This document shows, piece by piece, positions 16,925 to 54,235 of a stretch of DNA of 64,000 bases. The notes under the pieces were generated by a model. It saw nothing but the letters and a program-made list of their open reading frames with translations, did not search any database and was not told the DNA's origin. Source of the stretch: Peptococcaceae bacterium BICA1-7 (GTDB lineage Bacteria > Bacillota > Desulfotomaculia > Desulfotomaculales > Desulfocucumaceae); assembly GCA_000802095.1 (NCBI GenBank), contig JUEB01000015.1, forward strand, positions 62,001-126,000, written 5' to 3'. The position numbers and the translations under genes were made by a program. Position 1 is the stretch's first letter, and each line of letters begins with the position of its first letter.

Positions 16925-16939
16925 CAGGGGGGGATAAAA

Positions 16940-17533
16940 ATGGCTGAGTATACTTTGAAGACTCCTTTAACGGAAGAAGACGTAAGAAAGCTCAGGGTTG
17001 GTGATAAGGTAACGCTGGAGGGTGTTATTTTCGGGATCAGGGATGCCAATCTTATTCGGATGTTTGATGGACAAGTACCTTCTCCGGTGGACCTCACCGG
17101 AGCGGCATGCATACACACTGCCCCGAATGTGCGCAAGGTCGGCGAGGGCAAATACGAGCCGGTGTGCATCGGGACCACTACCAGCAGCCGGATGGACAGG
17201 TTTACCCCCGGGCTTATGTTTGAGTACGGGGTTCGTGCTGTTATAGGCAAGGCCGGCATGATGGAGGCCAGCATGGAGGCCATGAAAAAGCACGGCGGCT
17301 GCTATCTGGCCATTGTTGGCGGAGCTGCGGCCTGGGAGACCGAAAGAATAATGTCCATCGACGGAGTCTGGTGGGAAGACCTTATGCCGGAGGCTATCTG
17401 GAAATTCCAGACCAAGAACTTCGGACCACTGATCGTGGCCATGGATTCCCACGGCAACAACATTTACTTTGATGTCAAGGCCAAGGCGGCGTCAAAGCTG
17501 CCCGAAATCTTTAAAAAAATTGGTGCGGAGTAA
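16940..17533 (+). CDS. Class I fumarate hydratase / tartrate-dehydratase-type beta subunit, copy 2
   Basis: Beta subunit partner of the preceding gene, 197 aa. Motifs LRVGDKVTLEGVIFGIRDAN, GTTTSSRMDRFTPGLM and, near the C-terminus, PEAIWKFQTKNFGPLIVAMD followed by SHGNN. The last segment resembles E. coli TtdB ([20 protein letters not shown]...HGNN) more than copy 1 does. ATG 16940 follows GGGGGG, 15 bp after the alpha stop. Operon context with sdhCDBA favours fumarase; sequence wording leaves a tartrate-dehydratase or dual role open. The 70 bp before sdhC contain overlapping hairpins. Confidence 0.87.
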   Translation: MAEYTLKTPLTEEDVRKLRVGDKVTLEGVIFGIRDANLIRMFDGQVPSPVDLTGAACIHTAPNVRKVGEGKYEPVCIGTTTSSRMDRFTPGLMFEYGVRAVIGKAGMMEASMEAMKKHGGCYLAIVGGAAAWETERIMSIDGVWWEDLMPEAIWKFQTKNFGPLIVAMDSHGNNIYFDVKAKAASKLPEIFKKIGAE

Positions 17534-17540
17534 ATACCTG

Positions 17541-17578
17541 GTCCGTGGGCTCTTTGCTCACGGACTTGTATAAGTCCG
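17541..17578 (+). other. Overlapping hairpins between fumarase-2 and sdhC
   Basis: GTCCGTG / CACGGAC (17541-17565) overlaps GGACTT / AAGTCC (17563-17578), so the two stems are mutually exclusive. No T tract follows. They may set mRNA processing or relative expression within the operon. Confidence 0.4.
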
Positions 17579-17603
17579 GCAAAAATTAAGGAGGAATCTT
17601 TTT

Positions 17604-17993
17604 ATGTCCAACCGGGAGATGGCGGTCACTCCCAGATTCAAAACACACAGCCAGGTCTGGTCCGCAGTGGGAATGTGGGCCTGGATGCTGCACCGTTTAA
17701 CCGGTATCGGCATTGTGCTTTACCTTTTGCTGCATGCCACGCTGATGGGAACCAGCCTGATCAGGGGAGCCGAGGCATTTAATGCCACGCTGAATACTCT
17801 GATGACCAACCCGGTCCTGCACCTTGCAGAGATCGCTCTGGTGGGCGCTATAATCTACCACGGCATGAACGGTATTCGATTGCTGCTTTTTGATATCGGC
17901 ATAGGCTTTAGCAGGCAGAAGGAAATTTTCTGGGTGTCCATGGCCATTGGCGCTGCCATGTGGATTTTTGTTATTATATCAAAGCTTTCCTAA
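17604..17993 (+). CDS. sdhC: Succinate dehydrogenase/fumarate reductase cytochrome b subunit (SdhC)
   Basis: Membrane anchor of 129 aa with three membrane segments (about 30-55, 68-92 and 103-127). The motif WAWMLHRLTGIGIVLYLLLH and the histidine in ALVGAIIYHGMNGIRLLL match SdhC heme-ligand positions. It binds quinone and heme b in the membrane and carries the SdhB/SdhA catalytic part. ATG 17604 follows AAGGAGG. Gene order C-D-B-A follows the second fumarase pair, so the operon encodes consecutive malate-fumarate-succinate steps. Confidence 0.9.
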   Translation: MSNREMAVTPRFKTHSQVWSAVGMWAWMLHRLTGIGIVLYLLLHATLMGTSLIRGAEAFNATLNTLMTNPVLHLAEIALVGAIIYHGMNGIRLLLFDIGIGFSRQKEIFWVSMAIGAAMWIFVIISKLS

Positions 17994-18015
17994 AGAATAC
18001 GACACGGGGGATGGT

Positions 18016-18348
18016 GTGCGCGTGAACGCTATTACATGGTTATTTCAAAGAATCACCGCAGCGGTGCTGCTGGTTCTGCTGGGAGTGCACTTGTGGCTGC
18101 TTTATATGAACAACACTTCTGAGGTAATCAGCTTTGCCGAGGCCAAGGCCAGGCTGATGAGTGCTCCCTATATCACTCTTTACGTGCTGCTTCTTCTTTT
18201 CGGCTTGTTCCACGCCCTTAACGGACTGTACACGGTTATGGTGGATATGGGCATCAAGCCGAGAAAAACAGCCATCGGCGCTCTATTGGCCGTTGGTTTG
18301 GGCCTGTTTGGAATAGGCCTCATTTCAATTTTTCAATTTATCATGTAG
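18016..18348 (+). CDS. sdhD: Succinate dehydrogenase/fumarate reductase membrane anchor (SdhD)
   Basis: Second membrane anchor, about 110 aa with three membrane segments. GTG 18016 (MRVNAITWLFQRI) lies just behind GGGGG; GTG 18022 is an alternative, and starts further upstream would overlap sdhC. Histidines in LGVHLWLLYM and LFGLFHALNGLYTV are candidate heme ligands; with those of SdhC they would allow two hemes b, as in type A complexes (inference). It lies 22 bp after sdhC and 19 bp before sdhB. Confidence 0.85.
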   Translation: MRVNAITWLFQRITAAVLLVLLGVHLWLLYMNNTSEVISFAEAKARLMSAPYITLYVLLLLFGLFHALNGLYTVMVDMGIKPRKTAIGALLAVGLGLFGIGLISIFQFIM

Positions 18349-18367
18349 TTTATAGGAGGCGGATAAT

Positions 18368-19093
18368 TTGTCTTCCCAGGAGATTAAAGCTAGGATATTC
18401 CGCTATGACCCCGAGCAGGATGTCGAACCAAGGTTTGACGTCTATACTATACCGGTTATTAAAAATATGGCCATCCTGGACGTTGTTTTTCACGTTCAGA
18501 ACTATATCGATAAGTCTTTGGCCTTCAGGTGCTCCTGCCGGATAGGAATGTGCGGGTCGTGTGCGATGTACATCAACGGCAAGCCGAGGCTTGCCTGCCG
18601 CACCCAGGTTTCCAGCCTCGGAACCTCCGAGGTAACCATCATGCCGCTGCCCAATCTGCCCATTATCAGGGACCTGGCCACCGACATGGAGCCGTTCTTT
18701 GAGAAATGGAAGAAAATAAAGCCTTACTATGTGGGCAAGCCGGAACTTAAGGACCCTGTGGTTATTCGTCCTGACTCCGATGAGCGGGAGTTTATTGACC
18801 AGATGCTTGACTGCATAACCTGCGGCTGCTGTTATGGCGCCTGCTCCATGGTGGCTACCAACGAGGACTATCTCGGACCTGCCGCCCTCAACCGGGCATA
18901 TACCCTTGTGGCGGACAAACGTGACTCCATCAGGGTGGAAAGGCTTAAGGCCGTCGGCCGCTCCTATGGTGTATGGCGTTGCCATGACCAGTTCAACTGC
19001 GCCGAGGTCTGTCCGAAAAACCTTGTTCCCACCAAGTCCATACAACAGCTTAAGAAGCGGTGTGTAATGCAAAAATTCGGGGTCTTTAAATAA
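18368..19093 (+). CDS. sdhB: Succinate dehydrogenase/fumarate reductase iron-sulfur subunit (SdhB)
   Basis: Electron-transfer subunit, 241 aa, TTG 18368 after AGGAGG. The [2Fe-2S] site is visible in CSCRIGMCGSC (about residues 56-66) with a further cysteine at RLAC. CITCGCCYGAC near 148 with CAEVCP near 211 supplies the [4Fe-4S] cluster, and CHDQFNC supplies the [3Fe-4S] positions. It passes electrons between the flavin of SdhA and the heme/quinone site of SdhC/SdhD at the cytoplasmic face of the membrane. Direction (fumarate reduction or succinate oxidation) cannot be read from this subunit. Confidence 0.93.
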   Translation: MSSQEIKARIFRYDPEQDVEPRFDVYTIPVIKNMAILDVVFHVQNYIDKSLAFRCSCRIGMCGSCAMYINGKPRLACRTQVSSLGTSEVTIMPLPNLPIIRDLATDMEPFFEKWKKIKPYYVGKPELKDPVVIRPDSDEREFIDQMLDCITCGCCYGACSMVATNEDYLGPAALNRAYTLVADKRDSIRVERLKAVGRSYGVWRCHDQFNCAEVCPKNLVPTKSIQQLKKRCVMQKFGVFK

Positions 19094-19117
19094 GACGCTT
19101 TAAGGAGTGTGGCTTTA

Positions 19118-20848
19118 GTGGAAGAGATCAAAACTGATGTATTAATACTGGGCAGCGGTGGAGCGGGCCTTTTCGCCGCACTGCACGTCTATGACAATAA
19201 TCCGGGGCTGGACGTAATCCTGGCCACCAAGGGACTGATCGGCAAATGCGGCTGCAGCCGTATGGTGCAAGGCGGTATGAATGTGGTATTGAATTCCGCC
19301 GACTCCGTTGACAAGCACTTCATGGACACCATCAAGGGCGGGGGCTATATCAACGACCAGGAACTGGCCTATACCCTGGTGTCGGACGCACCCAAGGCGG
19401 TGCATGAGCTGGAAGTTAAGGTGGGCTGCTTCTTCGACCGGGCCGAGAACGGGGAAATACACCAGAAAGCCTTCGCCGGGCAGTCCTTTGACCGTACCGT
19501 CCACGTGGCCGACTTAAGCGGCATACAGATTATCGCCAGGCTGACCGACCAGGTTTTTCGCCGGCAGGACAGGATCAAGGTGCTGGAGGAGACCCGGGGA
19601 CTGGACCTGCTGACCACCGCTGAGGGCGACCGGGTGGTGGGGGCCGTACTGGCCGATATGAGGACCGGGGAATTGATCGTGGTTAATGCCAAGGTGGTTA
19701 TCGTGGCCACCGGCGGAGCTTCCTCTATGTACAAAATATCAGCCCCCTCCGTGGACAAGACCGGTGACGGAATGGCCATGTGCTTCAGGGCCGGGGCCGA
19801 GTTTTGCGATATGGAAATGATGCAGTTTCACCCCACCGGTCTGCTGGCAGGTCAGTCCAGGCTGAGCGGCAGCGTTCTGGAAGAGGGCTTAAGGGGCGCC
19901 GGCGGCTATCTGATCAACGGCCTCGGAGAAAGGTTCATGGAGCGCTACGACCCCGAGCGCATGGAGAGGTCCACCCGGGACCGCGTGGCCCGGGCGGGCT
20001 ACATGGAAATTATGGCCGGCCGGGGCACTGAGAGCGGCGGTGTTTATCTGGTGATGGGCCACCTGGGGTCCGAGTTCGTAGAGAAAAAGTTTCCAGGCAT
20101 GTGTGACCGGGTAAGAGACGTCGGCAAGGAGCTGTCCAAAGAGCCCGTGGAGATAAGCCCCACCTCCCACTTTATGATGGGGGGGGTAAAAATAGACAGG
20201 GACTGTCAGGCCAGTCTGAAAGGGCTTGTGGTGGCCGGGGAGGACTCCAGCGGGGTTCACGGGGCCAACCGTCTCGGCGGGAACGGGATCGGCGAGTCCG
20301 TTACCTTTGGCCGCAGGGCGGGAGATACCGCCGCCGCCCTTGCCGAGCAGGAGCTGCTGAGACCTTTCAGGCAGGAGCAGGTGGAGGAGATCAAACAGCG
20401 CTGGCTCAAGTTCTTCAAGCCTACCACCGGTGTTGACATTTATCCCATAAGAGACGAGATCAAGAACCTAATGTGGGAAAAGGTGGGCGTTGTCCGGGAA
20501 GCCAAGAAGCTGCAGGAGGCCATTTCCAGGCTTAACGGGATGTACGAGGAGGCCCAGAAGGCTTACGTGACCAACAGAACCCTCAGAAGGTTCAACATGG
20601 AGTGGAATGAAATAATGAACACCATTAACTGGATAACAGTGGCCAGGATGGTGGCCAACTCCGCCCTGCTGAGGAAAGAGAGCCGGGGGTCCCACTATCG
20701 CTCGGACTGCAAAACAGATAATGAGAACTGGCTGAAGAACATCTATATGAAGAAAAAAGGTGAGTTTGAGATCGAAACAGACATCCGGCCTATTATTTCC
20801 ACACGTTTCTCTATGGAAGAAATCAGAAAGCTGAATGTCCAGTACTGA
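19118..20848 (+). CDS. sdhA: Succinate dehydrogenase/fumarate reductase flavoprotein subunit (SdhA/FrdA)
   Basis: Catalytic FAD subunit of about 576 aa. GTG 19118 is chosen because TAAGGAG lies 10 nt upstream; GTG 19109 is too close to it. Visible: dinucleotide motif ILGSGGAGLFAALHV, substrate-site segments QFHPTGLLAG and SPTSHFMMGG, and VHGANRLGGNGIGESVTFG. The position where family members carry the histidine that binds FAD covalently (SHTxxxxGG) reads CGCSRMVQGG here, with Cys or Ser in place of His, so FAD may be non-covalent. In E. coli enzymes loss of that histidine mainly harms succinate oxidation, so fumarate reduction is favoured. It closes the operon; an unusual UxaA-like gene follows after 200 bp. 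Confidence 0.92.
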   Translation: MEEIKTDVLILGSGGAGLFAALHVYDNNPGLDVILATKGLIGKCGCSRMVQGGMNVVLNSADSVDKHFMDTIKGGGYINDQELAYTLVSDAPKAVHELEVKVGCFFDRAENGEIHQKAFAGQSFDRTVHVADLSGIQIIARLTDQVFRRQDRIKVLEETRGLDLLTTAEGDRVVGAVLADMRTGELIVVNAKVVIVATGGASSMYKISAPSVDKTGDGMAMCFRAGAEFCDMEMMQFHPTGLLAGQSRLSGSVLEEGLRGAGGYLINGLGERFMERYDPERMERSTRDRVARAGYMEIMAGRGTESGGVYLVMGHLGSEFVEKKFPGMCDRVRDVGKELSKEPVEISPTSHFMMGGVKIDRDCQASLKGLVVAGEDSSGVHGANRLGGNGIGESVTFGRRAGDTAAALAEQELLRPFRQEQVEEIKQRWLKFFKPTTGVDIYPIRDEIKNLMWEKVGVVREAKKLQEAISRLNGMYEEAQKAYVTNRTLRRFNMEWNEIMNTINWITVARMVANSALLRKESRGSHYRSDCKTDNENWLKNIYMKKKGEFEIETDIRPIISTRFSMEEIRKLNVQY

Positions 20849-40956: not shown

Positions 40957-43900
40957 ATGAACAAAGAACTGATTCTAATTAGCGTGGCCTCGGACGGATC
41001 GGTGGAGCAATGGGACGGGCTTAATACACCGAAGGGCATTCTCCTGCGCTGGTTCCATGGATCCCTTGGCTTCCCGGAATTGGGCTATGATGTCTTCCGG
41101 GCGAAGATTACCGATCCTGCCGGGCTTGACTGGGCCAGGTTAGCTGATGGCATGAATGGCCGGGAAAGCTACAAAACCGCTGATGGGCTTGTTATAACCT
41201 GTCCGGAGGGGTTTCAGTTTGCCGGTTATCAGGGCCGGCCCGGGCTGAAAATCACACTGAAAAACCCGGTTACCTTTATTTTTCCTGATCCCGCCTGGTA
41301 TCTTTCTCTTCAGACAGCCCCGGTCCAGGGCAGTCATAATATCACCGTGAATTTATTTGTGTCCGGCAAGGTCCGGGAGACCCTCTATTTGGACTCCGTT
41401 AACCCCGGGGCGGTCTGCCGCACCCGCGGCATTGACCGGGTGGAGCTATCTGGAGAGGGCATTTGCACAGTATTTTCCTATCAGCTTATCTCTTCCATAG
41501 CCGGTTGGCAGCTGATTTGGCACGCCTGCCTGCCGGTGACCGATCCGGCCTATGCCGGCGGGTCCGGCTGGAGCGGGTCCGATGAGGACGAGGCCCGGCG
41601 GCGCCTGCCCCCCAAAGCTGATTGGTCTGGCCGTTACGGCCCTGCGTTTAAAGAACTATATACCTATTTGAAAAGTATTGCTGCTGGAAAGCCGCTGCCT
41701 GAGCTGCCGCCTGCGGCTCAAACCGGGGTGGAGGCCCCTTCCCTTAATCTTACTGTACCGGAGGCCATCGAGACCGCCATGCTAAATCCCCATGTGGCGC
41801 GTATGCTGGGCACTGCCTGGGATGATCCGCTGGGGGGGAGCCTGGACGGCGATGCCTATGCCTATAAGGTGGTGGGCGCCTGGAAGGGGGCTTTGCACCG
41901 GTGGCTCTTCCGCTCCCCCAAGGTTCTAAGTGTACTTCGTGAAAATGGCATCGATATTACAGTGCCAACTGTACTATTTCCTATTGGAAGAAGCGGCTGG
42001 GAAATCTCCTTGCCGGCCCGGGGTGCCATAGAGATTACGGTGAAAAAGCCGTGTGAGCATCTGTCGATAGTGCTTTCCTCAGCCCGGGATTTGAACTGGC
42101 AGACCCTGGATGCAAAGGGCCGGCTGCTTGATCGGGGAGTTTTTCCGGCTACGAAAAAATATGCTGAGCTGAAGGTTAAGGGCTACCGGCTTCACCGGCT
42201 CCAATTGCTGGGTCCGGCCGAAATCCGCCTGACACAGCTGCGTCTGCAGAATCTGCCGGTGGAGCGCACTGCTCTGCTTCCCTGTGTAATAGCCCAGGAA
42301 CCCGGGGCGCCATCAGGGCCGGGGCTTCTATACCCGGAAGTGGTACAGGCCGGGAACGCAGTGCGATCCCTGGAGGCGCGCCTGCATTGGGATCTGCCCC
42401 TTTCCCGGTCAGGGGCGGTCTCAGAGACCGGACCGGTGTTTTACCAGGTGGCGGGAGTGCAGGTGGGGGACGATCCGGAGCAGCCGGCACAGCAGCCTCC
42501 TCAATTCAATAACAACTTTTTCCTTCATAAAGACCAGTTATTAATGGTTCCACCCCAGGCCGCCGCTGCGGATTACCCCTGCTTTTTCATCGATCGGCCC
42601 CTGTCCGAAGGCTGGCGCTGCTGGTGGGTCAGGGGAGTGGATTTATTCGGGCGGGTCAGTGTGTTTTCGGCTCCTGAAATTGCGCAAATTGTGGACAACG
42701 CGCTGCCTCCTGCCCCCTCTATACTGCTGGCGGAGTATGTTCAGGATAGCCTGGCGGCCAGCCAGCAGAGCCTTACCGGGTATTCAGAGTTTGGACAGGC
42801 CTGGCTGGCTGCCAACCCTGGAGGTCAGGCGGTGGTGGTGGGCTGGGGCTGGACCCCGGAACTGGCCCTGGAATGGCCGGATGTGGACTGTTTCCAGGTG
42901 CACGTGAGGCGGCCGCAGACAATACAATTCCCGGAGCCGAACGGTCCCATTGCTGCCTACCCTGAGGATCCGTCCTCCTGGGGGCCGGATCGAGCCCAAT
43001 TGGCCCCGGTGGCGGCCCGCCTGGACGGTAGAATCAGGGATGTCTTTAATGGAATTCCCCAGGTTGCACTGACCACCTTTGAAGTGGCCGATGAGGCCCA
43101 TACTGTTTATCAAACCGATATTTCACTGGATCTGGGCCGGGGAGCATTGCTGGGAGCTGTGGTCAGGGCTGCCCACGGCGGGACTGAGGGCATTATTGCA
43201 GGGCATGGAGAAGGTCCCCGCATATTGATTACTCTGGAACATCCCGAAAACCAGTCCCCCAATAACGGAACTTATTCTATTGCCCGGGGAGACGGAAAGC
43301 TGTTTACGGTGGAGACTGATATCGTTCCCGGGCCTCTGGATCAAGATCCATTTCACCGGCGCATAAGCGGGGTACTGATCAAGGGTGATCAGCGCTGGGC
43401 AGTCCTGCGCCAGGATTCCGGCCGCTTTCTATGCCTGGGTGACATTCCGCCGGTATCCGGCGATGGCATCGCCTGGCTGCCGGCGTACCTGATGGCCATC
43501 CCGGACAATAATTTCGGCCCGGATCCCAAAGGCACAGGGCTACCCGTGGCATACGCCCAGGTGGCGGTGCGATCGGTGCGGCACTGGAAGCAGCGGCCGC
43601 TGTTTTCAGAATTCAGCCGGCCTGGGACCCTGAGCGCAGTGGATTGCGCTCAGCCCAGTCCGCCCGAGGTAGAATACCTGCCCTGCGGGCCCTTCTGCGC
43701 CCAATTGGCCACCAGGGCGGACTGGTACGGCATCTCCCGTTTCACTCTAAGCTGGGAAACCAGGCCTGGTGAAACCTACCAGGTTTATCGCGCCCTGGGT
43801 GAGGCGATCTACGCCCTTGACCGGCAAGCCCACGGCGCCGGTGCGCATCCCTTTCCGAATGATCCCGGCGGGGTGTGGCCGGTGGGGATATACTCCGAGA

Positions 43901-44901
43901 TTATTGCGGAGGCCGATCGTAAAGCCATAGTGCAGGAGGATTTCAACCTGCTGGATGCCGCTCTGCACAGCGGCAGTGATGAGGCTATCAGGATTACCTA
44001 CCGGAAGCTTCATGCCGACACTCAGCGTTTGCTGGCAGGCCAGGCCTGTGTGGAGTCAGCCTATTCACTGAGGCATGGACATCCCCTTACTGCCGGCCAG
44101 GTACCCTTTACTGATGAATTTGACGGCCGCTCCCGGGCTCACTGGTTCTACCGGGTTACCGCCCTTTCCCACTCCGGGGTGGAAAGTCACAAGACTGAGC
44201 CCACCCCGCCCATCTGCTGCCCGGATGTGGTGCCGCCGGCCCCTCCCACAGCGCACATGGCCCTTGCCGGAGAGGGTGTGGTCAAGCTGCACTGGCTGCC
44301 GTCCAGCGCAGAAGATCTGAATTGCTACCTTATCTACCGGGCTGACGGCGAGGATGCGGCTACTGACATCCGGTCTATGTTTCAGGTAGCCAGGATTACA
44401 AAAGATCCCACTGTGCCCGGGGCTGTTGATGAAAAACCCCCCGCATGGGTTACAGACCAGGGAGGAAATGTAGTCACTCCCAGGCGGTTGGAATACTGTG
44501 ACCCGGCTCCTCCGGGTAAGGAGTGGTTTTATCGGATAGTGGCTGAAGATAGTTCCGGCAATCGGTCCCAGCCGTCTATTATTTTACGCGGCCGGGCGCT
44601 GCTGGCGCCGCCCGCGCCCCCGGTGTGGAACCCGCCGGCGCGTGTTCCGGAAACCAATCCGGTAAAAATACAGCTTTCGTGGACCCATCCAACCGACCAG
44701 CGGCTGGCCTGTTTGGTGGAAAGACGCGTGGCTGGAGGAAGCCTGTGGATTGGGGTATCCAGTTGGCTGCCACGAAGTGTATATAATTTTAAAGACACCC
44801 CCCCCGATATAACGCTGGCCTGGGAATACCGGCTGCGGGTTCGTAACCACGGGGGTCAGCAAGCTTCAGAAATGCCAGTAGTGCTTTTAAATGCACTTTA
44901 A
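40957..44901 (+). CDS. Large FnIII-like modular protein of unknown function
   Basis: A 1314-aa protein with no signal peptide or membrane segment. ATG 40957 follows AAGGAG. The first ~240 residues are beta-rich; about residues 270-320 hold AMLNPHVARMLGTAWDD then AYAYKVVGAW. Proline-rich linkers (PPAPP, APPAPP) introduce fibronectin-III-like modules near 1090-1205 (ending EWFYRIVAEDSSGNRS) and 1216-1314; a third such module around 900-1085 is interrupted by a helical insertion. Tryptophan- and proline-rich, low lysine, base composition clearly richer in G+C than both flanks. First of three adjacent genes with 10-11 bp gaps. The layout suggests a structural or binding scaffold; I recognise no enzyme. 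Confidence 0.85.
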   Translation: MNKELILISVASDGSVEQWDGLNTPKGILLRWFHGSLGFPELGYDVFRAKITDPAGLDWARLADGMNGRESYKTADGLVITCPEGFQFAGYQGRPGLKITLKNPVTFIFPDPAWYLSLQTAPVQGSHNITVNLFVSGKVRETLYLDSVNPGAVCRTRGIDRVELSGEGICTVFSYQLISSIAGWQLIWHACLPVTDPAYAGGSGWSGSDEDEARRRLPPKADWSGRYGPAFKELYTYLKSIAAGKPLPELPPAAQTGVEAPSLNLTVPEAIETAMLNPHVARMLGTAWDDPLGGSLDGDAYAYKVVGAWKGALHRWLFRSPKVLSVLRENGIDITVPTVLFPIGRSGWEISLPARGAIEITVKKPCEHLSIVLSSARDLNWQTLDAKGRLLDRGVFPATKKYAELKVKGYRLHRLQLLGPAEIRLTQLRLQNLPVERTALLPCVIAQEPGAPSGPGLLYPEVVQAGNAVRSLEARLHWDLPLSRSGAVSETGPVFYQVAGVQVGDDPEQPAQQPPQFNNNFFLHKDQLLMVPPQAAAADYPCFFIDRPLSEGWRCWWVRGVDLFGRVSVFSAPEIAQIVDNALPPAPSILLAEYVQDSLAASQQSLTGYSEFGQAWLAANPGGQAVVVGWGWTPELALEWPDVDCFQVHVRRPQTIQFPEPNGPIAAYPEDPSSWGPDRAQLAPVAARLDGRIRDVFNGIPQVALTTFEVADEAHTVYQTDISLDLGRGALLGAVVRAAHGGTEGIIAGHGEGPRILITLEHPENQSPNNGTYSIARGDGKLFTVETDIVPGPLDQDPFHRRISGVLIKGDQRWAVLRQDSGRFLCLGDIPPVSGDGIAWLPAYLMAIPDNNFGPDPKGTGLPVAYAQVAVRSVRHWKQRPLFSEFSRPGTLSAVDCAQPSPPEVEYLPCGPFCAQLATRADWYGISRFTLSWETRPGETYQVYRALGEAIYALDRQAHGAGAHPFPNDPGGVWPVGIYSEIIAEADRKAIVQEDFNLLDAALHSGSDEAIRITYRKLHADTQRLLAGQACVESAYSLRHGHPLTAGQVPFTDEFDGRSRAHWFYRVTALSHSGVESHKTEPTPPICCPDVVPPAPPTAHMALAGEGVVKLHWLPSSAEDLNCYLIYRADGEDAATDIRSMFQVARITKDPTVPGAVDEKPPAWVTDQGGNVVTPRRLEYCDPAPPGKEWFYRIVAEDSSGNRSQPSIILRGRALLAPPAPPVWNPPARVPETNPVKIQLSWTHPTDQRLACLVERRVAGGSLWIGVSSWLPRSVYNFKDTPPDITLAWEYRLRVRNHGGQQASEMPVVLLNAL

Positions 44902-44911
44902 TGGAGGTAGT

Positions 44912-46972
44912 ATGCGAGACAATGGATTTCTCCGGACACCTATTCGGGCTGACCAGCAAGCCCAACTACAGGGTCTGCAAGTGCACGAACAGCCCTTGCT
45001 GGGCGATCCAAAACCAGGCGATCCTTACCCTCAAACGCTGGTAATTACTTTCACTTCTCCTGCAGGAGGGCCTGATGTTCAGATTGCCCCCCTGTGGGAA
45101 GGCGCGCTGTATTTCCTGGCTGATTCCACAGCCGGGTTGCCAACCAGGCCTGCAGATGCGGTCGAAGCCAAGTTCTCATCCTGGACGCTGGTGGGTGACT
45201 TGGTGCTGATTACGCCACAGGGACTGGAGAACGCCTTCAGGAACCATATCCCGCTTATTACCCCACCGCCGGGAAGTGTGCGCTACAGCAAGGTCAGACT
45301 GACCCGTGAATTTCTGTTTACGACCTTAAAGAGACTCAGGAAATTTACTTTCGCTTTTCAGGGCCAGGCCACAACGTCAAACGAACACGCCAAGTGTCTG
45401 GTGGGCTTTCTGCAAGGCCGCACCGGAGTGTTGTGCGCAGTGGATGCCAGGGACCCTGGCCAGGACAATGCGCAGCTGGACATGCCGGTGGTATACTCAG
45501 CCGGTGGAGGGACTGCCACCCTGCGTGTGACCGCATCGAGCCTGATTCCAGAGATTAATAAAGCGCATTGGTTCGATCAATGCCCGGATTACGATGACCT
45601 TGCCGGGGAAACGCTGGTGCCGGCCGGACTGGCACAGCCGGAATTTCAGAGATTCCACCCCTGTCATCCAAGCCATTCGGTAGTATCGTTGCTGGCCTTA
45701 TTTCAAACGGCCGCCGCATCTGTATACGCACCAGATCATGGTGTGAGCACACCCTTACGCACGCTTATGAGCGCTCCACTGCAGGGCGGTAAGGTATATC
45801 GCCGGCTCACCGTCAGACGTCCGCCCATACCTGGGGTGATCACATCCAGCCCCAACCGTTCTTTTCCTTCCTATCAACTTGTTTTGCAAGGCGCTGGTGA
45901 GACCGGCTCGCTGCGCATTCCCCTTAGCGGACGGATGTATCTGCCACTGGCCGACGGGCCGTATCTGATATTTGCCATCCCCCGCTCCCTCGATCCTCAA
46001 AATGGCATTGCCGGTCAGCCCTTCCCACTTTCTTTGGATCACAGCACTCAAGGTAAAAGATACCTTGATTTTCCAACTCCAACAGTGACGGTGGATTTAG
46101 CTGCCGGGCAGACAGATGTCACGATTTACGCGCATTTACGGGAATACGACTCCAGGAGGGCCTGGAAAGTGTTCCGCGATTTAACCGCCAGGCAGAGAGC
46201 GTTGAGGAGAACATTGGGCGTTCGATGGAACGTTGGACCTATGGACCAGCCTAATGTTCAGACCACTATGGCCTGGTATGTCCCTACCCAGGATCCGGTC
46301 AATATTGATTACGCGGCTGTTTACGGCTACATCCGGGAAGCAGCCGGACGTCACGGGCTATCGCCCGAATTCCTGCATGCCGTTCTAATGGGTGAGGGTG
46401 TGTCAGGGGGTAATCTAAGTCTTCTATACATTAACCTGCACCATGTTCCGCCTATCCGTTACGATGATACTAATCAGAATTTTAATAGTTTTTCTTATTT
46501 GGGCTTGGATGACATCTGGCTGGAAGTGGACACCCTGATTGCCGAAAACTATGTAGACCCCCGTTTTAAGGCCCAAATGACCGCCTTGCCCCAGATCCCC
46601 CACGAGCTTAATGATCTGGTAACACCCGCTATTATTAAGGGCTGGGAAGCTGCGGTGGAACTGATGGCGGCAGATCTCCACTGGCGTCAGGATCTGGGGA
46701 CAGCCTATTGTCAAAACCACGTTCCAGCTATCTCATGCCGTACAGAGTTGAGACGTCGCTATCTAACCTATGTGCATTTCAACACCGGCCAGCCCTGGCA
46801 GCCTGATTCAGGTCAGCGCAGGGCAGAAAGACGGCTGAATCTCATCGAAAGTCAATGTTCACCATGGCCATCCACTGAGCCCCGGCCATCGGGGCCGGGT
46901 GATGCCCGCTTCAATTCGCTGGTTCGTGTGGCTACGGCTGCCTGGTACGATCAAATCCAAGTCTACAGATAG
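44912..46972 (+). CDS. Large unknown protein with a lysozyme-like C-terminal segment
   Basis: A protein of 686 aa; ATG 44912 follows TGGAGG and the spacing to the preceding stop is 10 bp. Residues 1-450 are beta-rich with no recognised motif. Around 465-600, YGYIREAAGRHGLSPEFLHA followed by VLMGEGVSGG resembles the start of lytic-transglycosylase/goose-lysozyme folds, where a glutamate after HGLxPxxLxAV is catalytic; here Glu 495 is the candidate. The following region (NFNSFSYLGLDDIW) would be the loop side. Four-cysteine content is low and there is no signal peptide, so if it acts on peptidoglycan it must be delivered by another route. This domain call is by eye and tentative. Confidence 0.82.
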   Translation: MRDNGFLRTPIRADQQAQLQGLQVHEQPLLGDPKPGDPYPQTLVITFTSPAGGPDVQIAPLWEGALYFLADSTAGLPTRPADAVEAKFSSWTLVGDLVLITPQGLENAFRNHIPLITPPPGSVRYSKVRLTREFLFTTLKRLRKFTFAFQGQATTSNEHAKCLVGFLQGRTGVLCAVDARDPGQDNAQLDMPVVYSAGGGTATLRVTASSLIPEINKAHWFDQCPDYDDLAGETLVPAGLAQPEFQRFHPCHPSHSVVSLLALFQTAAASVYAPDHGVSTPLRTLMSAPLQGGKVYRRLTVRRPPIPGVITSSPNRSFPSYQLVLQGAGETGSLRIPLSGRMYLPLADGPYLIFAIPRSLDPQNGIAGQPFPLSLDHSTQGKRYLDFPTPTVTVDLAAGQTDVTIYAHLREYDSRRAWKVFRDLTARQRALRRTLGVRWNVGPMDQPNVQTTMAWYVPTQDPVNIDYAAVYGYIREAAGRHGLSPEFLHAVLMGEGVSGGNLSLLYINLHHVPPIRYDDTNQNFNSFSYLGLDDIWLEVDTLIAENYVDPRFKAQMTALPQIPHELNDLVTPAIIKGWEAAVELMAADLHWRQDLGTAYCQNHVPAISCRTELRRRYLTYVHFNTGQPWQPDSGQRRAERRLNLIESQCSPWPSTEPRPSGPGDARFNSLVRVATAAWYDQIQVYR

Positions 46973-46983
46973 GAGGATCAAGA

Positions 46984-49900
46984 GTGCTCACTGCGACGGA
47001 ACTTGAAGGGAAATTACTATATCCTCTTGGCGATGTGCTGGAGTCTGAGCCTCTAGCCTCTACCCTGGGTGGACTAAAGGATGCTATAGCGGAGGCTATG
47101 GACCGGCTCTTTTTTGCAGATCCGTCCTTTGCCTGGGTGGATAATGGCTGGCTCGGCTCAGCTACACTGGTGGTGAGCGAGGAAGTTGAGCTTTCACTGC
47201 CGGGACTTGATTCTTTTGCCGTTGTTTTGGGCAGCGGTCAGGGAGTAAGTGGCTTCAATCTGGAAGTTGAACTTGTACAGGATCCGGTGCTTACCTCGTT
47301 CAGGGTCGGGGTGCAGCAGGTTGAAATTAAGTTGCGCATCGGTTCAGATATACTGCGGCCGGTCAAACCCGGCACTCAGGAGGTAGATCAGGACGCCAGG
47401 GGCGTAGATATTTCCCTGGGTGCGATTGATTTGACTCTGGATGATGAGGGCCCTCACTTCGATTTTAATGCGGCTCTTTCCATTCCACCCTGTATGATAG
47501 GTTCCACCGGGATTATCCTGCAGATAAAACAAGCCCGCTGGCTAACGCGCTCCTCGGAAAATTTGCCTCCCAATATGCCTGCGGATTTCACCGGCCTGTT
47601 TCTGGACGATGTGGAGGTGACCATCCCCGGGCTGCCCGGGACCTTCCGCCTGGATGACGCCTTTATCGGCACCGGCGGTTTTTCCGGCAAGATCTCGGAA
47701 ACCGGCCTGGCACTCACCTGGGACAGTGCCAAAAAGGAATTCCAGGGTGACCTGGCGGGTGGTCTATTTGGCTTCCAGGGAGGTCTTAAGGAAGTATCGC
47801 TGGAATTCAGACAGAGCATGCCCACCGGCTGCAGTATCACCGGAGATGTTTTTATACCGTATCTGGAAAAGAGGGTGGGGCTTACTCTGGGCCTCACCGG
47901 GGGCGGCGGCCTGACTGCGGCGGCCGGAGTTCCCTTTTCCACCAGTACGGACCCCAATGACCAGTCAGCGGCTGAGGCCCCCGGCGCCGATGAATATCTG
48001 ATCAGTGTCAAGCTTGGCGATTTCTTCGAATTTGACGTGGCCACCCTTAAATTTGAAGTGCCTTTTCAGGGCCCTGCCGCAGTGGAATTGAGCGGCCGGA
48101 CTCAAATCAAATTTAGTGAAAAAACCCCTCCAATTTCCTTCAAGGGCCTGCGCATCGACAGCGGGGGCAATGTTTCCATCAGCGGAGGCTGGTTGGATCT
48201 GGACCGCCAGGAGCTGATCAATTTCAATGGCTTCTCTCTGGAAATTTCCAGGATCGGCTTCGGGGTGTTTGACGATGGCCGGCACTGGATCGGCTTAAAC
48301 GGCGGGCTGCATTTGGCCCAGGGCCTGCCCATGGGGGCCTCGGTGGAAGGGCTGCGGCTCTCGTGGGATCCTAAAGCGTCCAGACCCTTTGACACTCTTT
48401 CCGTGAGTCTTGACGGCATAGGGCTTGAGCTCACGGTCCAGAATGTTTTTTCATTCGCAGGTGAGGTGGCCTTTTTCAATGACGACCAGGGAAAAGGTTT
48501 CCGGGGGCATGTCAAGCTAAGCCTGATTCAGCTCAAACTTACTGTAGACGCCGAGATCGTGGTGGGCCGGAGCAATGATGGGATCACCTTCTTCTACTTC
48601 TATTTGTCGGTGGACCTGCCCACCGGCATTCCGCTGGGCAATACCGGAGCGGCCTTCTTCGGCTTCCAGGGGCTGCTTGCCCGGCACATGGCCCCCAACA
48701 AGCGCGCCGATGAAGAGTGGTATTATGGCTGGTATCTCCGCTCTCCCAAGGGAGCCACCTCCGGGAAAAAGTGGGGATATGAACGTGATGCCTTTGCCGT
48801 GGGGCTGGGCACCACCATAGGCACCAATTCCGATAACGGTTTTATAGTTCACGCCCGGGTGCTCCTGGTGATAGTGCTTCCAGGCCCGCGCTTGCTCCTG
48901 GAAGGCAAGGGCAATTTTATCAAACAGCGGGGCGACAGCACCATGGAAGGAACCTTTGAAGCCCTCCTGGCGCTGGATTTCTGCGCCCAGCTGTTTCAGT
49001 TCAACCTGGCGGTTACCTTTAAGATCCAGGACCTGCTGGATGTTACGGCCGGCACGGATATCGCCTTCTCCTGGGCGCCCACCCCCCCTGCGGACTGGTG
49101 GCATGTCTATATGGGCCAGAAAAATCCCCCGGAAAAGCGCTGCCGGGCCAATCTCCTGTCCATTGTGCAGGGCTATTCCTATTTCCAGCTCTGGCGCAAC
49201 CGCATGCTGCTTGGCGCCTGGATAGGCATTGAAAAAGACTGGAAATTCGGGCCTGTGCATGCCTGGGTGAAAGCGTCCCTGGAGGGAGAGGCCGATGTCC
49301 GCTATATCGCAGTGCCGCCCTCCACCGAGCGGGCTATCCAGTTCGAGGCCTATTTGCGTCTGAGCGGTGGCGCGGGACTGGAAGTCTTTGGAGCAGGTTT
49401 AAGTGTGTTGCTTGATGCCCAGGCCATGGCCAAGGGGCCGGCACCCTGGTTCCTTTCCATGAACGTCCACCTGGAGATCAGGATAGACCTGTGGATTGAT
49501 GAATGGAGCTGGGAAAAGGATCTGCCGCTGACCTGGGGCGATGAAAGTGTACCTCTACCCCAGCCGGTCCAGCCCATCGTGGCCCGGATTGCCTGGGAGC
49601 ATCCCAAGGTAATGGAGCGGGCCGATGACAGGCCTGCGGAGCTGGAAGGAGCCGTCATACCCCCGGACGCCCGGCCGGTTATTATATTTGACCGGCCGGT
49701 GCGTGATTTACCTGGCCTGGGGGCTCCCGGTATTCCCAACCTGGCCGCTGAAGAAGTAGGTAAGAGAAAGTTTTCCTACCAGCTGCACCACCTGGTTTTA
49801 GTGCGTAAAGACAGCCGGGGAGAGCATTTGGTGGGTGCGTCCGGAGTGCTGAAGGTCAGCCGTGGACTGGCCTCCCTGCAGGGCGTAAGCACACTGCCGG

Positions 49901-52900
49901 ATACCGGCGGCAGCATGCTCAACATCGGGGAGTATCCCAATTTGCGGGTGATATCCAACCAAAATGGACAGCTGGTTTTGTCTGCGCCGCTTCCGGATGG
50001 AGATTACGCCTACAGGATGACCGGCCCACTGCCTAAGGCCAGTGTGACCATTATTTCCGCCAGTTTTTCCGGTTACGGCACCGCCGAGGTGACACTTGGC
50101 GCGGATCCGGGGCTGGAGGCCGATATTTGCGCAGGCGGGCTACTGGGCGCAGGCGATAAACAGTGGACAGTGGTGACGCACCAGGGAACCACAGTTGTTG
50201 TCCGGGTGGAGGGAGATATGCCGGCAGCAGGCGCCGCAACCCTGAGGGCATTGAAATCGTCTACTCTGGAAGGTGTCTGGCTGCCGGCTAAAGACCAGCA
50301 GCCGGAAGCTACCAAGCTAATGCTGGGGGCGAAAACGCCCTTTACATATTTCCGCAACAGCTTTACAGAGGTAATAGAGGGGTTTGACTTGCACAATCCG
50401 GATTACGCCTGCGGGCCCCAGGCTGAAGAAGAGCCCATCTGCGCCAATTTTGACGACTTGCCTCTGGGTGTGCTGGCGGGGCCCTTTGCCACGGAGCTTT
50501 TGACCGGTGAAGCCCAGGGTGAAAACTGCGTGGTGATGGATGGTCTTTTCCAGGCCAAGCCGTGCCTGGGAGTAGGTGTCAGGTACGATCAGTCCTGGAA
50601 CGGCAGTGGTACCGTGACTTTAGGCTTTGAACCGGCGGTGGAGCGGGTTTGGGTTCACTGCCGCACCGATGAGGGCGGGGAAGTGGAGGTATGGTCCCGG
50701 GGAAAACTGCTGGGCTCTGCCTGGGTACCTCATGGACAATCGGCAGGAGTGATAGATTTTTCAGGCGAGATTGATACCATTGTGATCAAAGGATCTCTGG
50801 TATACTGTCACCGGGTCTGTTTCCTGCCGGGTTGGACCTGTGTGGATTTTGATGAACAGTCCTTCCCGCAGCAGTCCACCGGACGGCAAAGCTATGCAGG
50901 GCTGTACTGGGATACCCCGGGGACCATGTTGGTGACCAATGGTCAGCTGAAGGTAGAGCCACCTCCGGCGAAAAAACCCGCCAGCAAGCGGAAAGTAATA
51001 GATATGACAGCCCTTTGGTCCAGACAAAGATTTAAGGTGTGGCCGCTAATCCCGGAAAACAAAGAGATGGCCCCGCGGGTCATCGGGATCCCATGGAAAG
51101 CTGCGGTTTTAGAGCAACAGGGCAGGCCTCTTTATATTCCCGGAGTGGGGCTGGCCTCGCTGGCTTCAACCAGGCCCAACAATATCTCGGGCCGGTTAAA
51201 CCCGTCGGTGGATTTTGATCTGCCTGACCTGCCAGATCTGCCCGATGGTCCCCTAAAGCCCCCACAGGTTACACTGGTGTCCCTGTCCATTGATTTGCCC
51301 CAGCCGGTTACCCGGGTGCTCCTGGATTTGGGCTGGTCTGCCTTTGCCACCGCTTATGCCGGTTCCACGGTGGTCGATAGCGCCCACGGCCAGAGCGGAG
51401 GGACGCTTATTCTGCGGGCGCGCAGCGGTTGGATCGGCCGGGTGGTACTGGTGGCGCCCTTTCAGCTTGTGCTTAAGAGTATCTGCTATGATGCGGGCGA
51501 ATTTGGCTGGCTCCGGTTTGAGCAGTGGAGCTGGCGGAATAGTACGCTGCACTCCATTGAGGCCTTTTACCAGGAAGACCCTGTTTTGCAGCCAGGGGAT
51601 TACCGGCTGGATGTGATAACAGCCTGGGATGATGAAAATGACTCCAGGCCCCCCGAGACGTCTTTAACCTCTGCTCAGTTTACAGTGGGGCCGCCGCCGG
51701 GTCTGGGCGCTGTTGCACAGCCGCAGTCCAGGCCCGGTGAGCCTTCACCCGGGACCGCGCCCCAGAAGTATCCTGAGGGCGGGCCATTGGCCGATCTCCG
51801 CCTTTATGTGGCTAAAACCCTGCCCGCCGACGGACAGCGGCCTTTCTACCGCAGCTATGATTTGTCCATAGAGTTTAATGAAAATTACATCACCCGTATG
51901 TATCTCGGCGCCAGGGCTCCTTTAAGTATCCGGGTGTTTGACTCCAGCGGGCAGGAGCGCCGGCCGGCCGCACCTGTGGTCTGGGGCAGCGGCCACACGG
52001 TGGCCCTCTCAGCGGAAGAAGTGGTGTGGACCAAGACACTGCACAATGACGGCAGCCGCCGCTGCGCTTCTATCGATATGGAAGATGTGGTGCGTGATGA
52101 GAGGGCCAGTCTGGGCAGCGGTGAATTAATGGCCCCGGCCATGATCCATACCGGTATTGTTTCGTCTGCCGGGAAGAACTTATACCGGTTTGAATTTACC
52201 ACTTCAAGGTATGCGGATTTTCGTTCCCAGATCAATGATTTTGACGGCCAGTGCCGGGCAGCGGCAGGAGAAATTACCTCCATCATGATCCCGTCCGCAG
52301 TGTTTCAGGCAAGACAGCAGCAGGCCGATGTCCTAAAGGCATACAGTGACGCCCTGGATGCCATCAATACAGGTAATCCCCCGGCCGCTGAGTTTGAAAA
52401 ATATCATCTGGCGCAAGACAGCCTTGTGCAGGCGCAAGCCTCTTTGCGTCTGGCGGAGCAGCAAGCCTTTGAGTATCTGTGGAGCCAATGTTCCCTGGGA
52501 GGAATTGCTGATTTGCCGGATCGGCTGGAAGTGTCCGCCCTTTCGGGGGGATTTGTGCTGCAAAGCCCGGAGCCAATGCATTTTGAACGATTGTCTGTTA
52601 CGGTGGACAGGTGTTCCGCTCCGCCGCTGAGACAACGCCAGATCACCTTTGGCGCGGATTTTGGCGGGCCGGATATGGGGGATTTTTCATATGCCGGATT
52701 GGAATGGAGCACCAACTTGGAACTGGAAGCCAAAAATGGCGCTATGCGAACCCGTCTGGCCCAGCCCTGGACATTGACACTGAAAGTCAGTCACGCTGTC
52801 AGTGTGGAAATTGATCTAACTCTGGAGGCTGGCGTCACAGCCACTCTGCACGGGCAGGGGACGGCGGTTTTGACCGACGCCTCAGCCACGGCGGCCGGTG

Positions 52901-53580
52901 GGTCTCAGGCCACCACCCTGATGGTTACTGCAGCCAAACTGGATAGTGTGACATTGAGCGGATCGGGTATCTCGGTTTCGGCCATACGCCTGGTTGAACT
53001 CTTCATGCCGGTGCCTGCTTCCGGGCCGTTGCGCCTGATTATGGCCAAATTTCCAGCTAACGCGGCGGACACCCGGCATACTGTGGATATGCTTGCCTAT
53101 GAGGATACAGACCTCACCGGCTGGACCATCCGGGGCCATGCAGCCTTCCATCCGGAACAAACCTTCATCTATCGTGTTTTTAGCGGCGGAACCTTAAAGG
53201 CCAACCGGGTGGCCAGGATATACGCAGGGATGGCTTCAGGTATGCAGGACTCAGGGGTGGATTTATATTTCGGAGGTTTGAGCGGAAATGTTCCGTCCGA
53301 AGGGGCAGTGCTGCAACTGGTAGACCCAAATGGCAAAGTTCGGCATGAAACAGCGCTCCTGCCCAATTCCGCCTATGTTGGTGAGTATATGGCCCCGCCG
53401 CTCCCCAATAGCGATCATACCAAGGCCTTTATACTGGCAGGGGCGCCTCTGCAGTTTGGGTACTGGAGAATCAAGTTTAATTTCGCCCGCCATAAAGACT
53501 CATACCTGCCTATACTTACTGTGGGCGGGAGCTCTGAGCCTGAGGTGGCGGAAGTGAGGCTTCTGGCAGGCCATTTATGA
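46984..53580 (+). CDS. Giant beta-strand-rich protein, 2198 aa, unknown function
   Basis: The largest gene of the window; GTG 46984 follows AGGAGG, 11 bp after the previous stop. Residues 1-850 are built of alternating polar and hydrophobic strands (for example SFAVVLGSGQGVSGFNLEVE, GFSLEISRIGFGVFDDG, FAVGLGTTIGTNSDNGFIVH), similar in feel to large beta-groove or barrel proteins. About 860-1200 and 1390-1600 contain jelly-roll-like strands and proline hinges; a segment DFDLPDLPDLPDGPLKPP near 1420 is a linker. Around 1770-1840 lies the only clear long helix (QARQQQADVLKAYSDALDAI). The C-terminal 350 residues are again beta-rich. No signal peptide or membrane anchor. The long domain may belong to a DUF family of large bacterial proteins; I cannot name it. 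Confidence 0.85.
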   Translation: MLTATELEGKLLYPLGDVLESEPLASTLGGLKDAIAEAMDRLFFADPSFAWVDNGWLGSATLVVSEEVELSLPGLDSFAVVLGSGQGVSGFNLEVELVQDPVLTSFRVGVQQVEIKLRIGSDILRPVKPGTQEVDQDARGVDISLGAIDLTLDDEGPHFDFNAALSIPPCMIGSTGIILQIKQARWLTRSSENLPPNMPADFTGLFLDDVEVTIPGLPGTFRLDDAFIGTGGFSGKISETGLALTWDSAKKEFQGDLAGGLFGFQGGLKEVSLEFRQSMPTGCSITGDVFIPYLEKRVGLTLGLTGGGGLTAAAGVPFSTSTDPNDQSAAEAPGADEYLISVKLGDFFEFDVATLKFEVPFQGPAAVELSGRTQIKFSEKTPPISFKGLRIDSGGNVSISGGWLDLDRQELINFNGFSLEISRIGFGVFDDGRHWIGLNGGLHLAQGLPMGASVEGLRLSWDPKASRPFDTLSVSLDGIGLELTVQNVFSFAGEVAFFNDDQGKGFRGHVKLSLIQLKLTVDAEIVVGRSNDGITFFYFYLSVDLPTGIPLGNTGAAFFGFQGLLARHMAPNKRADEEWYYGWYLRSPKGATSGKKWGYERDAFAVGLGTTIGTNSDNGFIVHARVLLVIVLPGPRLLLEGKGNFIKQRGDSTMEGTFEALLALDFCAQLFQFNLAVTFKIQDLLDVTAGTDIAFSWAPTPPADWWHVYMGQKNPPEKRCRANLLSIVQGYSYFQLWRNRMLLGAWIGIEKDWKFGPVHAWVKASLEGEADVRYIAVPPSTERAIQFEAYLRLSGGAGLEVFGAGLSVLLDAQAMAKGPAPWFLSMNVHLEIRIDLWIDEWSWEKDLPLTWGDESVPLPQPVQPIVARIAWEHPKVMERADDRPAELEGAVIPPDARPVIIFDRPVRDLPGLGAPGIPNLAAEEVGKRKFSYQLHHLVLVRKDSRGEHLVGASGVLKVSRGLASLQGVSTLPDTGGSMLNIGEYPNLRVISNQNGQLVLSAPLPDGDYAYRMTGPLPKASVTIISASFSGYGTAEVTLGADPGLEADICAGGLLGAGDKQWTVVTHQGTTVVVRVEGDMPAAGAATLRALKSSTLEGVWLPAKDQQPEATKLMLGAKTPFTYFRNSFTEVIEGFDLHNPDYACGPQAEEEPICANFDDLPLGVLAGPFATELLTGEAQGENCVVMDGLFQAKPCLGVGVRYDQSWNGSGTVTLGFEPAVERVWVHCRTDEGGEVEVWSRGKLLGSAWVPHGQSAGVIDFSGEIDTIVIKGSLVYCHRVCFLPGWTCVDFDEQSFPQQSTGRQSYAGLYWDTPGTMLVTNGQLKVEPPPAKKPASKRKVIDMTALWSRQRFKVWPLIPENKEMAPRVIGIPWKAAVLEQQGRPLYIPGVGLASLASTRPNNISGRLNPSVDFDLPDLPDLPDGPLKPPQVTLVSLSIDLPQPVTRVLLDLGWSAFATAYAGSTVVDSAHGQSGGTLILRARSGWIGRVVLVAPFQLVLKSICYDAGEFGWLRFEQWSWRNSTLHSIEAFYQEDPVLQPGDYRLDVITAWDDENDSRPPETSLTSAQFTVGPPPGLGAVAQPQSRPGEPSPGTAPQKYPEGGPLADLRLYVAKTLPADGQRPFYRSYDLSIEFNENYITRMYLGARAPLSIRVFDSSGQERRPAAPVVWGSGHTVALSAEEVVWTKTLHNDGSRRCASIDMEDVVRDERASLGSGELMAPAMIHTGIVSSAGKNLYRFEFTTSRYADFRSQINDFDGQCRAAAGEITSIMIPSAVFQARQQQADVLKAYSDALDAINTGNPPAAEFEKYHLAQDSLVQAQASLRLAEQQAFEYLWSQCSLGGIADLPDRLEVSALSGGFVLQSPEPMHFERLSVTVDRCSAPPLRQRQITFGADFGGPDMGDFSYAGLEWSTNLELEAKNGAMRTRLAQPWTLTLKVSHAVSVEIDLTLEAGVTATLHGQGTAVLTDASATAAGGSQATTLMVTAAKLDSVTLSGSGISVSAIRLVELFMPVPASGPLRLIMAKFPANAADTRHTVDMLAYEDTDLTGWTIRGHAAFHPEQTFIYRVFSGGTLKANRVARIYAGMASGMQDSGVDLYFGGLSGNVPSEGAVLQLVDPNGKVRHETALLPNSAYVGEYMAPPLPNSDHTKAFILAGAPLQFGYWRIKFNFARHKDSYLPILTVGGSSEPEVAEVRLLAGHL

Positions 53581-53946: not shown

Positions 53947-54066
53947 TTAGTTCTTCTCTCCGTAGAACCCGCCGCCAAAGCCGCTGCCAAAGACAAGCAG
54001 GATGAGTATTAAGAAAAGGATGAAACTGGGATCTGAACCGATTCCGCCACCAACACCAAAACCCAT
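53947..54066 (-). CDS. YjcZ-like small spore membrane protein
   Basis: A 39-aa peptide: glycine-rich start [10 protein letters not shown], one hydrophobic helix [16 protein letters not shown], and GGGFYGEKN at the end. This is the layout of YjcZ-family sporulation peptides, common in many copies in Bacillota spore formers. ATG 54066 follows AAGGAGG. It sits between tRNA-Cys remnants A and B. Function unknown; spore coat or membrane association is likely. Confidence 0.8.
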
Positions 54067-54235
54067 TAAGATTCCTCCTTCCGTAAGCTATTTTATATCC
54101 TATGGAATTAAGGGGAAAAGTGTTCTTGTTTAGCCGTTAGAAAAAAAGGGACAACCTTTATATGCAAAGGGGCTATACCAGCCTATGACATATCAACAGG
54201 CTGGCCACGGCATATTACTGGAGCATTAAATAATA

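What the first reader, a model, noticed from the sequence alone, without database searches (positions are those of the whole stretch)
40957..53580. A three-gene operon of giant, unrecognised proteins with foreign-looking composition
Seen: 1314-, 686- and 2198-aa genes with 10-11 bp gaps, good ribosome sites, no signal peptides or membrane segments, and base composition clearly richer in G+C than the AT-rich DNA on its right. Gene 1 has FnIII-like modules, gene 2 a lysozyme-like segment, gene 3 long runs of alternating beta strands and one coiled coil. Cytoplasmic proteins of this size and kind occurring as a trio suggest an assembled machine or an injected/encapsulated particle rather than metabolism. 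I cannot match it to a known secretion, tailocin or defence system.
Basis: partly seen in the sequence, partly recalled or inferred. Interest (0 to 1): 0.8.

Follow-up and report, generated by a model that had tools for sequence, protein, structure and literature searches.

The report
Giant-protein operon with swappable middle enzyme
Two giant bacterial proteins of unknown function are kept as a pair in at least three bacterial phyla, while the gene between them, which in most relatives encodes a membrane-lipid-cutting enzyme, has been replaced here by a different gene together with the start of the neighbouring giant gene, as if a carrier were fitted with exchangeable cargo.

Summary
The three ORFs are real (40957-44901, 44912-46972, 46984-53580). 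They are not an inseparable trio. They are a conserved giant pair (g1, g3) flanking a swappable middle gene. g1 has C-terminal FnIII-type modules and an N-terminal 'GIxLRW' motif. The core of g3 is a distant relative of DUF6603/PF20248 (profile-profile E 2e-11), although PF20248 itself gives no hit. Related cassettes occur in two other genomes of the same order, in Mycetohabitans plasmids (both with a phospholipase D-like middle gene) and in Azospirillum. More distant g3 relatives occur in Paracoccus, Rhizobium and a Bacteroidota-like contig. Against the closest relative (g1 73%, g3 76% identical) homologous DNA stops at the end of g1 and resumes at residue 194 of g3. The unit exchanged is therefore the middle gene plus the N-terminal ~190 residues of g3. 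Both giants are under purifying selection (dN/dS about 0.17-0.19). 'Foreign composition' is not supported: codon usage is ordinary for this genome. 'Lysozyme-like' is unproven. Best explanation: a cytosol-assembled giant carrier with exchangeable, probably envelope-attacking, enzyme cargo and a cargo-matched adaptor; delivery and target are unknown. The Mycetohabitans cluster was mentioned in 2011 as 'three large hypothetical proteins'; no functional study was found in the library searched.

The parts
40957..44901 (+). g1: 1314-aa giant protein, conserved member of the pair
   Evidence: homologues 73% in L002, 22-30% in L003/L004/L012, Azospirillum by profile E 4e-13
41035..41100 (+). N-terminal motif of g1, GILLRW..SLGFPELGYDVFR
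   Evidence: A profile of this region finds, as its best hits outside the training set, the giant neighbours of g3 in L008 (E 8e-4) and L005 (E 2e-3)
44209..44898 (+). C-terminal FnIII-type modules of g1
   Evidence: Profile A9 against PDB: BDI_3064 3e-8, titin 1e-7, PTPRF 5e-5
44912..46972 (+). g2: 686-aa variable middle gene (cargo slot); replaced by a phospholipase D-like gene in relatives
   Evidence: no full-length homologue
44945..45565 (+). N-terminal domain of g2 shared with the third gene of the Azospirillum cassette
   Evidence: 28% over 232 columns, E 4e-9 in a pairwise test, 1e-6 in a 369-ORF set
46984..53580 (+). g3: 2198-aa giant protein (GTG start), second conserved member of the pair
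46984..47563 (+). N-terminal ~190 residues of g3: exchanged together with the middle gene; proposed cargo-matched adaptor
   Evidence: 18-43% identity to L002 in the first 180 residues against 80-95% over residues 181-960; region-to-core ratio 0.41 against 0.96-1.02 for pairs sharing closely related middle genes
48163..49602 (+). Conserved core of g3, distant relative of DUF6603 (PF20248)
   Evidence: hhalign 97% probability, E 2e-11 and 9e-11; no direct PF20248 hit
52300..52494 (+). Helical, coiled-coil-like stretch near the C-terminal part of g3, conserved in L002
   Evidence: sequence inspection
44845..47563 (+). Exchange block: no alignable DNA with the closest relative; flanks on both sides alignable at 71% and 81% DNA identity
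   Evidence: blastn boundaries at 44844 and 47564

Best explanation
The locus encodes a two-part giant carrier, g1 (FnIII-type scaffold) and g3 (beta-rich protein with a distant DUF6603 core), loaded with one exchangeable enzyme encoded between them. The first ~190 residues of g3 act as an adaptor specific for the resident enzyme and are replaced with it when the cassette recombines through the conserved parts of g1 and g3. The relatives' cargo is a phospholipase D-like protein (two HxK motifs, the second a full HxKxxxxD), or in Azospirillum a protein with a peptidoglycan-binding-type domain. The cargo is therefore probably an envelope-attacking enzyme. The complex is made in the cytosol without signal peptides and would leave the cell by lysis or by an unidentified exporter. 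Shown: the conserved pair, the swapped slot, the coupled exchange of the g3 N-terminus, purifying selection, the DUF6603 relation and the FnIII modules. Inferred: physical complex, adaptor role, enzyme activity of g2, export and target.
For: g1 and g3 flank a different gene in L002, with the order g1-PLD-g3 also in L003/L004 and L012 and g3-g1-g2-like in Azospirillum. Exchange boundaries lie inside the giant genes. The N-terminus of g3 tracks the middle gene: window against L002 ratio 0.41; Mycetohabitans against G427, which share PLDs 43% identical, ratio 1.02. dN/dS 0.19 for g1 and 0.17 for g3. PLD profile matches PLD1/2 (2e-26) and a 1099-aa 'Phospholipase D' chain, 7v53 (6e-19). Azospirillum gene-2 C-terminus belongs to a family with PG_binding_1 members. 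No secretion or membrane signals. Plasmid location of the relatives found in the plasmid set and sporadic presence in the class (3 of 113 genomes).
Against: No structure could be predicted, so no complex is shown. The enzymatic nature of the window's own g2 is unproven. No immunity gene is evident beside the cassette: the 0.8 kb after g3 holds only ORFs under 90 aa, which does not fit an antibacterial toxin aimed at kin. The coupled swap rests on one close pair of genomes, and fast divergence of the g3 N-terminus in one lineage cannot be fully excluded.
Confidence: 0.42

Rival explanations
1. A cell-envelope, spore-coat or matrix assembly of the producing cell: g1 and g3 form a structural scaffold and the middle enzyme remodels the cell's own lipid or wall.
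For: No immunity gene next to the cassette, genome-typical codon usage, FnIII modules and beta-rich giant proteins; PLD in one case and a PG-binding-type protein in another suit envelope remodelling.
Against: Absent from both congeners and most of the class, plasmid-borne in several phyla, no signal peptides, enzyme swapped for an unrelated one.
Confidence: 0.25
2. [quoted passage not shown]
For: This genome has an eCIS-like cluster on another contig (sheath, two gp19 tubes, Pvc16, AAA). The 2011 genome paper raised T4SS substrates for pBRH02. The PLD profile also matches a 1099-aa PLD chain that I recall as a T6SS effector.
Against: The genome carrying the closest cassette (G415, 99% complete) has no contractile sheath, no cassette found is linked to such genes, and 2000-aa proteins are unusual cargo.
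Confidence: 0.12
3. An anti-phage or anti-plasmid defence system with variable effectors.
For: Sporadic, often plasmid-borne, swapped effector; weak PADLOC matches of the PLD gene to DrmC and MkoB.
Against: The PADLOC matches are generic PLD similarity; g1, g2 and g3 match no defence model; no sensor ATPase or nuclease domain.
Confidence: 0.08
4. Independent unrelated genes that lie together by chance.
For: Gene 2 is an orphan.
Against: g1 and g3 recur together, mostly around a middle gene, in three unrelated groups.
Confidence: 0.03

Closest known systems
DUF6603 (PF20248) giant-gene clusters of Streptomyces, Nocardia, Rhizobium and haloarchaeal plasmids
   Same: Distant homology of the g3 core; clusters of several giant unannotated proteins, on plasmids
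   Different: PF20248 does not hit g3 directly; the giant neighbour next to DUF6603 in those clusters is not detectably related to g1; no function published in the library searched
Three-gene cluster of large proteins on Mycetohabitans (Burkholderia) rhizoxinica plasmid pBRH02 (RBRH_03371 region, PMC3102044)
   Same: Homologous g1 and g3 in the same order
   Different: Middle gene is PLD-like; window g2 is unrelated to the PLD gene tested; the paper gives no analysis beyond naming it
Modular toxin-carrier systems (T6SS effector-adaptor modules, polymorphic toxins, Tc toxin complexes)
   Same: Conserved carrier with exchangeable enzyme and an adaptor region exchanged with it, as a working analogy
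   Different: No Rhs, VgrG, PAAR or Tc domains found in g1-g3, no secretion signal, no adjacent immunity gene

Membership tests
DUF6603 (PF20248) | Match to PF20248 above its 27-bit cut-off | tested here: not met
   No hit of g3 or of the genome; an annotated Streptomyces DUF6603 protein gives 395 bits
DUF6603 (PF20248) | Remote homology of the core to DUF6603 proteins | tested here: met
   hhalign profile-profile 97%, E 2e-11 and 9e-11
g1-PLD-g3 cassette family | Homologous g1 and g3 flanking one middle gene | tested here: met
g1-PLD-g3 cassette family | Phospholipase D-like middle gene | tested here: not met
   Window g2 shows no PLD domain or similarity
Tc toxin complex | TcA, TcB or TcC/Rhs domains | tested here: not met
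   No Pfam or NCBIfam domain at E up to 1 that would indicate these
Contractile injection system or tailocin | Sheath, tube and baseplate genes in the cluster | tested here: not met
   No PHROG match; sheath genes lie on other contigs and none is found in G415
Known anti-phage defence systems | Match to PADLOC models | tested here: not met
Lysozyme superfamily (for g2) | Profile or fold match to a lysozyme-like domain | tested here: inconclusive
   No sequence match; fold prediction failed
Secreted multi-protein carrier | Physical complex and release from cells | not testable with these tools
   needs biochemistry

The most novel reading that the evidence does not exclude
A previously undescribed, non-contractile class of giant protein delivery complexes spread across several bacterial phyla, whose enzyme cargo and cargo-adaptor domain are exchanged as one cassette by recombination inside the carrier genes, and which shares an ancient beta-rich core (DUF6603) with giant-gene clusters in actinobacteria and haloarchaea.
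Probability: 0.25. Interest if true: 0.9.

Novelty: new variant of a known kind. Interest (0 to 1): 0.6.

Why it matters
DUF6603-type giant-gene clusters occur in bacteria and archaea, and no paper in the library searched mentions the domain. The natural cargo swap found here gives a concrete, testable hypothesis of what such clusters do (carry an enzyme) and which region selects the cargo (first ~190 residues of g3).

Tried and rejected
Foreign composition: rejected, codon usage is native. Lysozyme-like g2: no support. AlphaFold models of g3 residues 1-930 and of g2: pLDDT 34 and 33, so no fold search was run on them. Phage origin: no phage record matches g3 or g2; one IMG/VR contig carries distant g3 and g1 relatives. 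Known defence or contractile system: no matches. Common origin of g1 and the giant neighbour of classical DUF6603: not detected. Empty-site comparison with congeners: the left flanking transporter has no match there. Wider sampling of the phylum gave nothing more.

Full report
What is there. Three co-directional ORFs with tight spacing and good ribosome sites are present as described. None of the three proteins has a meaningful Pfam, PHROG, NCBIfam or PADLOC match, and none has a signal peptide or membrane helix. The composition argument fails: GC3 and codon usage are ordinary when compared with 92 genes sampled from ten other stretches of the same genome. Total G+C is high (97th-98th percentile for g1 and g3), which reflects amino-acid content, and the right flank is AT-rich.

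Relatives. One other genome of the order (Desulfotomaculum sp. MAG BL5_bin.2, L002, which appears to be the same contig as G415:C61) carries g1 (73% identical) and g3 (76%). Between them it has a 514-aa phospholipase D-like gene instead of g2. A second genome of the order (G427, complete) has g1 (1400 aa), PLD (514 aa) and g3 (1875 aa). Mycetohabitans plasmids have the same g1-PLD-g3 order; the 2011 genome paper of B. rhizoxinica mentions this cluster as three large hypothetical proteins, one with a PLD domain. Azospirillum oryzae has g3, g1 and a third gene whose N-terminal domain matches the N-terminus of the window's g2. The C-terminus of that third gene belongs to a family annotated as peptidoglycan-binding in Streptomyces and Rhizobium, and in Streptomyces it stands next to a classical DUF6603 gene. 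Paracoccus, Rhizobium tropici and Azospirillum thermophilum carry distant g3 relatives. A Bacteroidota-like IMG/VR contig carries g3, followed by a giant protein with the g1 N-terminal motif; its assignment to Bacteroidota is my reading of the sequence, not a test. Within the window's class only 3 of 113 genomes have g3 and both congeners lack it.

The exchange block. DNA similarity between the window and L002 runs to the last residues of g1 (44844), stops, and resumes at 47564, inside g3 at residue 194. Protein identity of g3 is 18%, 32% and 43% in the first three 60-residue bins and jumps to 80% or more after residue 180. As control, the ratio of N-terminal to core identity is 0.96 between two Mycetohabitans genomes and 1.02 between Mycetohabitans and G427, which share related PLDs (43% identical), against 0.41 for window and L002. 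The g3 N-terminus is thus not inherently fast evolving; it appears to travel with the middle gene. This rests on one close pair and needs more pairs. Both giant genes are under purifying selection (dS about 0.9-1.0, dN 0.15-0.18).

What the parts are. The g1 C-terminus is FnIII-type. The g3 core is a remote DUF6603 relative by profile-profile comparison, although the Pfam model misses it. Classical DUF6603 genes also sit in clusters of giant proteins in actinobacteria, rhizobia and haloarchaea; the conserved giant neighbour there is not detectably related to g1. The relatives' PLD genes keep two HxK motifs, the second a full HxKxxxxD, and match eukaryotic PLD1/2 and PDB chain 7v53 by profile. 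The window's own g2 remains unidentified; its lysozyme-like nature is not shown.

Mechanism. I favour a cytosolic giant carrier with exchangeable enzyme cargo and a cargo-matched adaptor at the start of g3. The conserved pair, the swapped slot, the coupled exchange and the selection are shown; the complex, the adaptor role, the enzyme activity of g2, release and target are inferred. The eCIS of this genome lies on another contig, and the genome with the closest cassette has no contractile sheath, so a contractile machine is not required. An own-envelope role remains a serious rival, mainly because no immunity gene is evident beside the cassette. The DUF6603 and cassette literature search was limited to the open-access library.

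Noticed in passing
G000 contig C9, L050:2125-9392: eCIS-like cluster in the same genome: two gp19-type tubes, sheath, Pvc16 N-terminal domain and an AAA ATPase, unlinked to the window.
   Followed up: partly
L014, L020-L025: Syntenic clusters of DUF6603 with other conserved giant proteins shared between actinobacteria, rhizobia and haloarchaea, on plasmids; one neighbour carries a PhoD-like phosphatase, another a PG_binding domain with the Azospirillum gene-2 C-terminus.
   Followed up: partly
G000 contig C32, near 16431-20771: A 9256-aa open frame with FnIII-like stretches in the same genome.
   Followed up: no
window 53950-54070, minus strand: A 39-aa glycine-rich hydrophobic ORF ([39 protein letters not shown]) that resembles, from memory, small YjcZ-type sporulation proteins.
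   Followed up: no
L002:16502-17158: A protein with pentapeptide-like repeats just downstream of g3 in the closest relative; not found after g3 in the window.
   Followed up: no
L015:12523-21204: Two more giant proteins (2569 aa and about 2490 aa) close to a PG-binding-domain gene on a Rhizobium ruizarguesonis plasmid, not related to g3 by the profile used.
   Followed up: no
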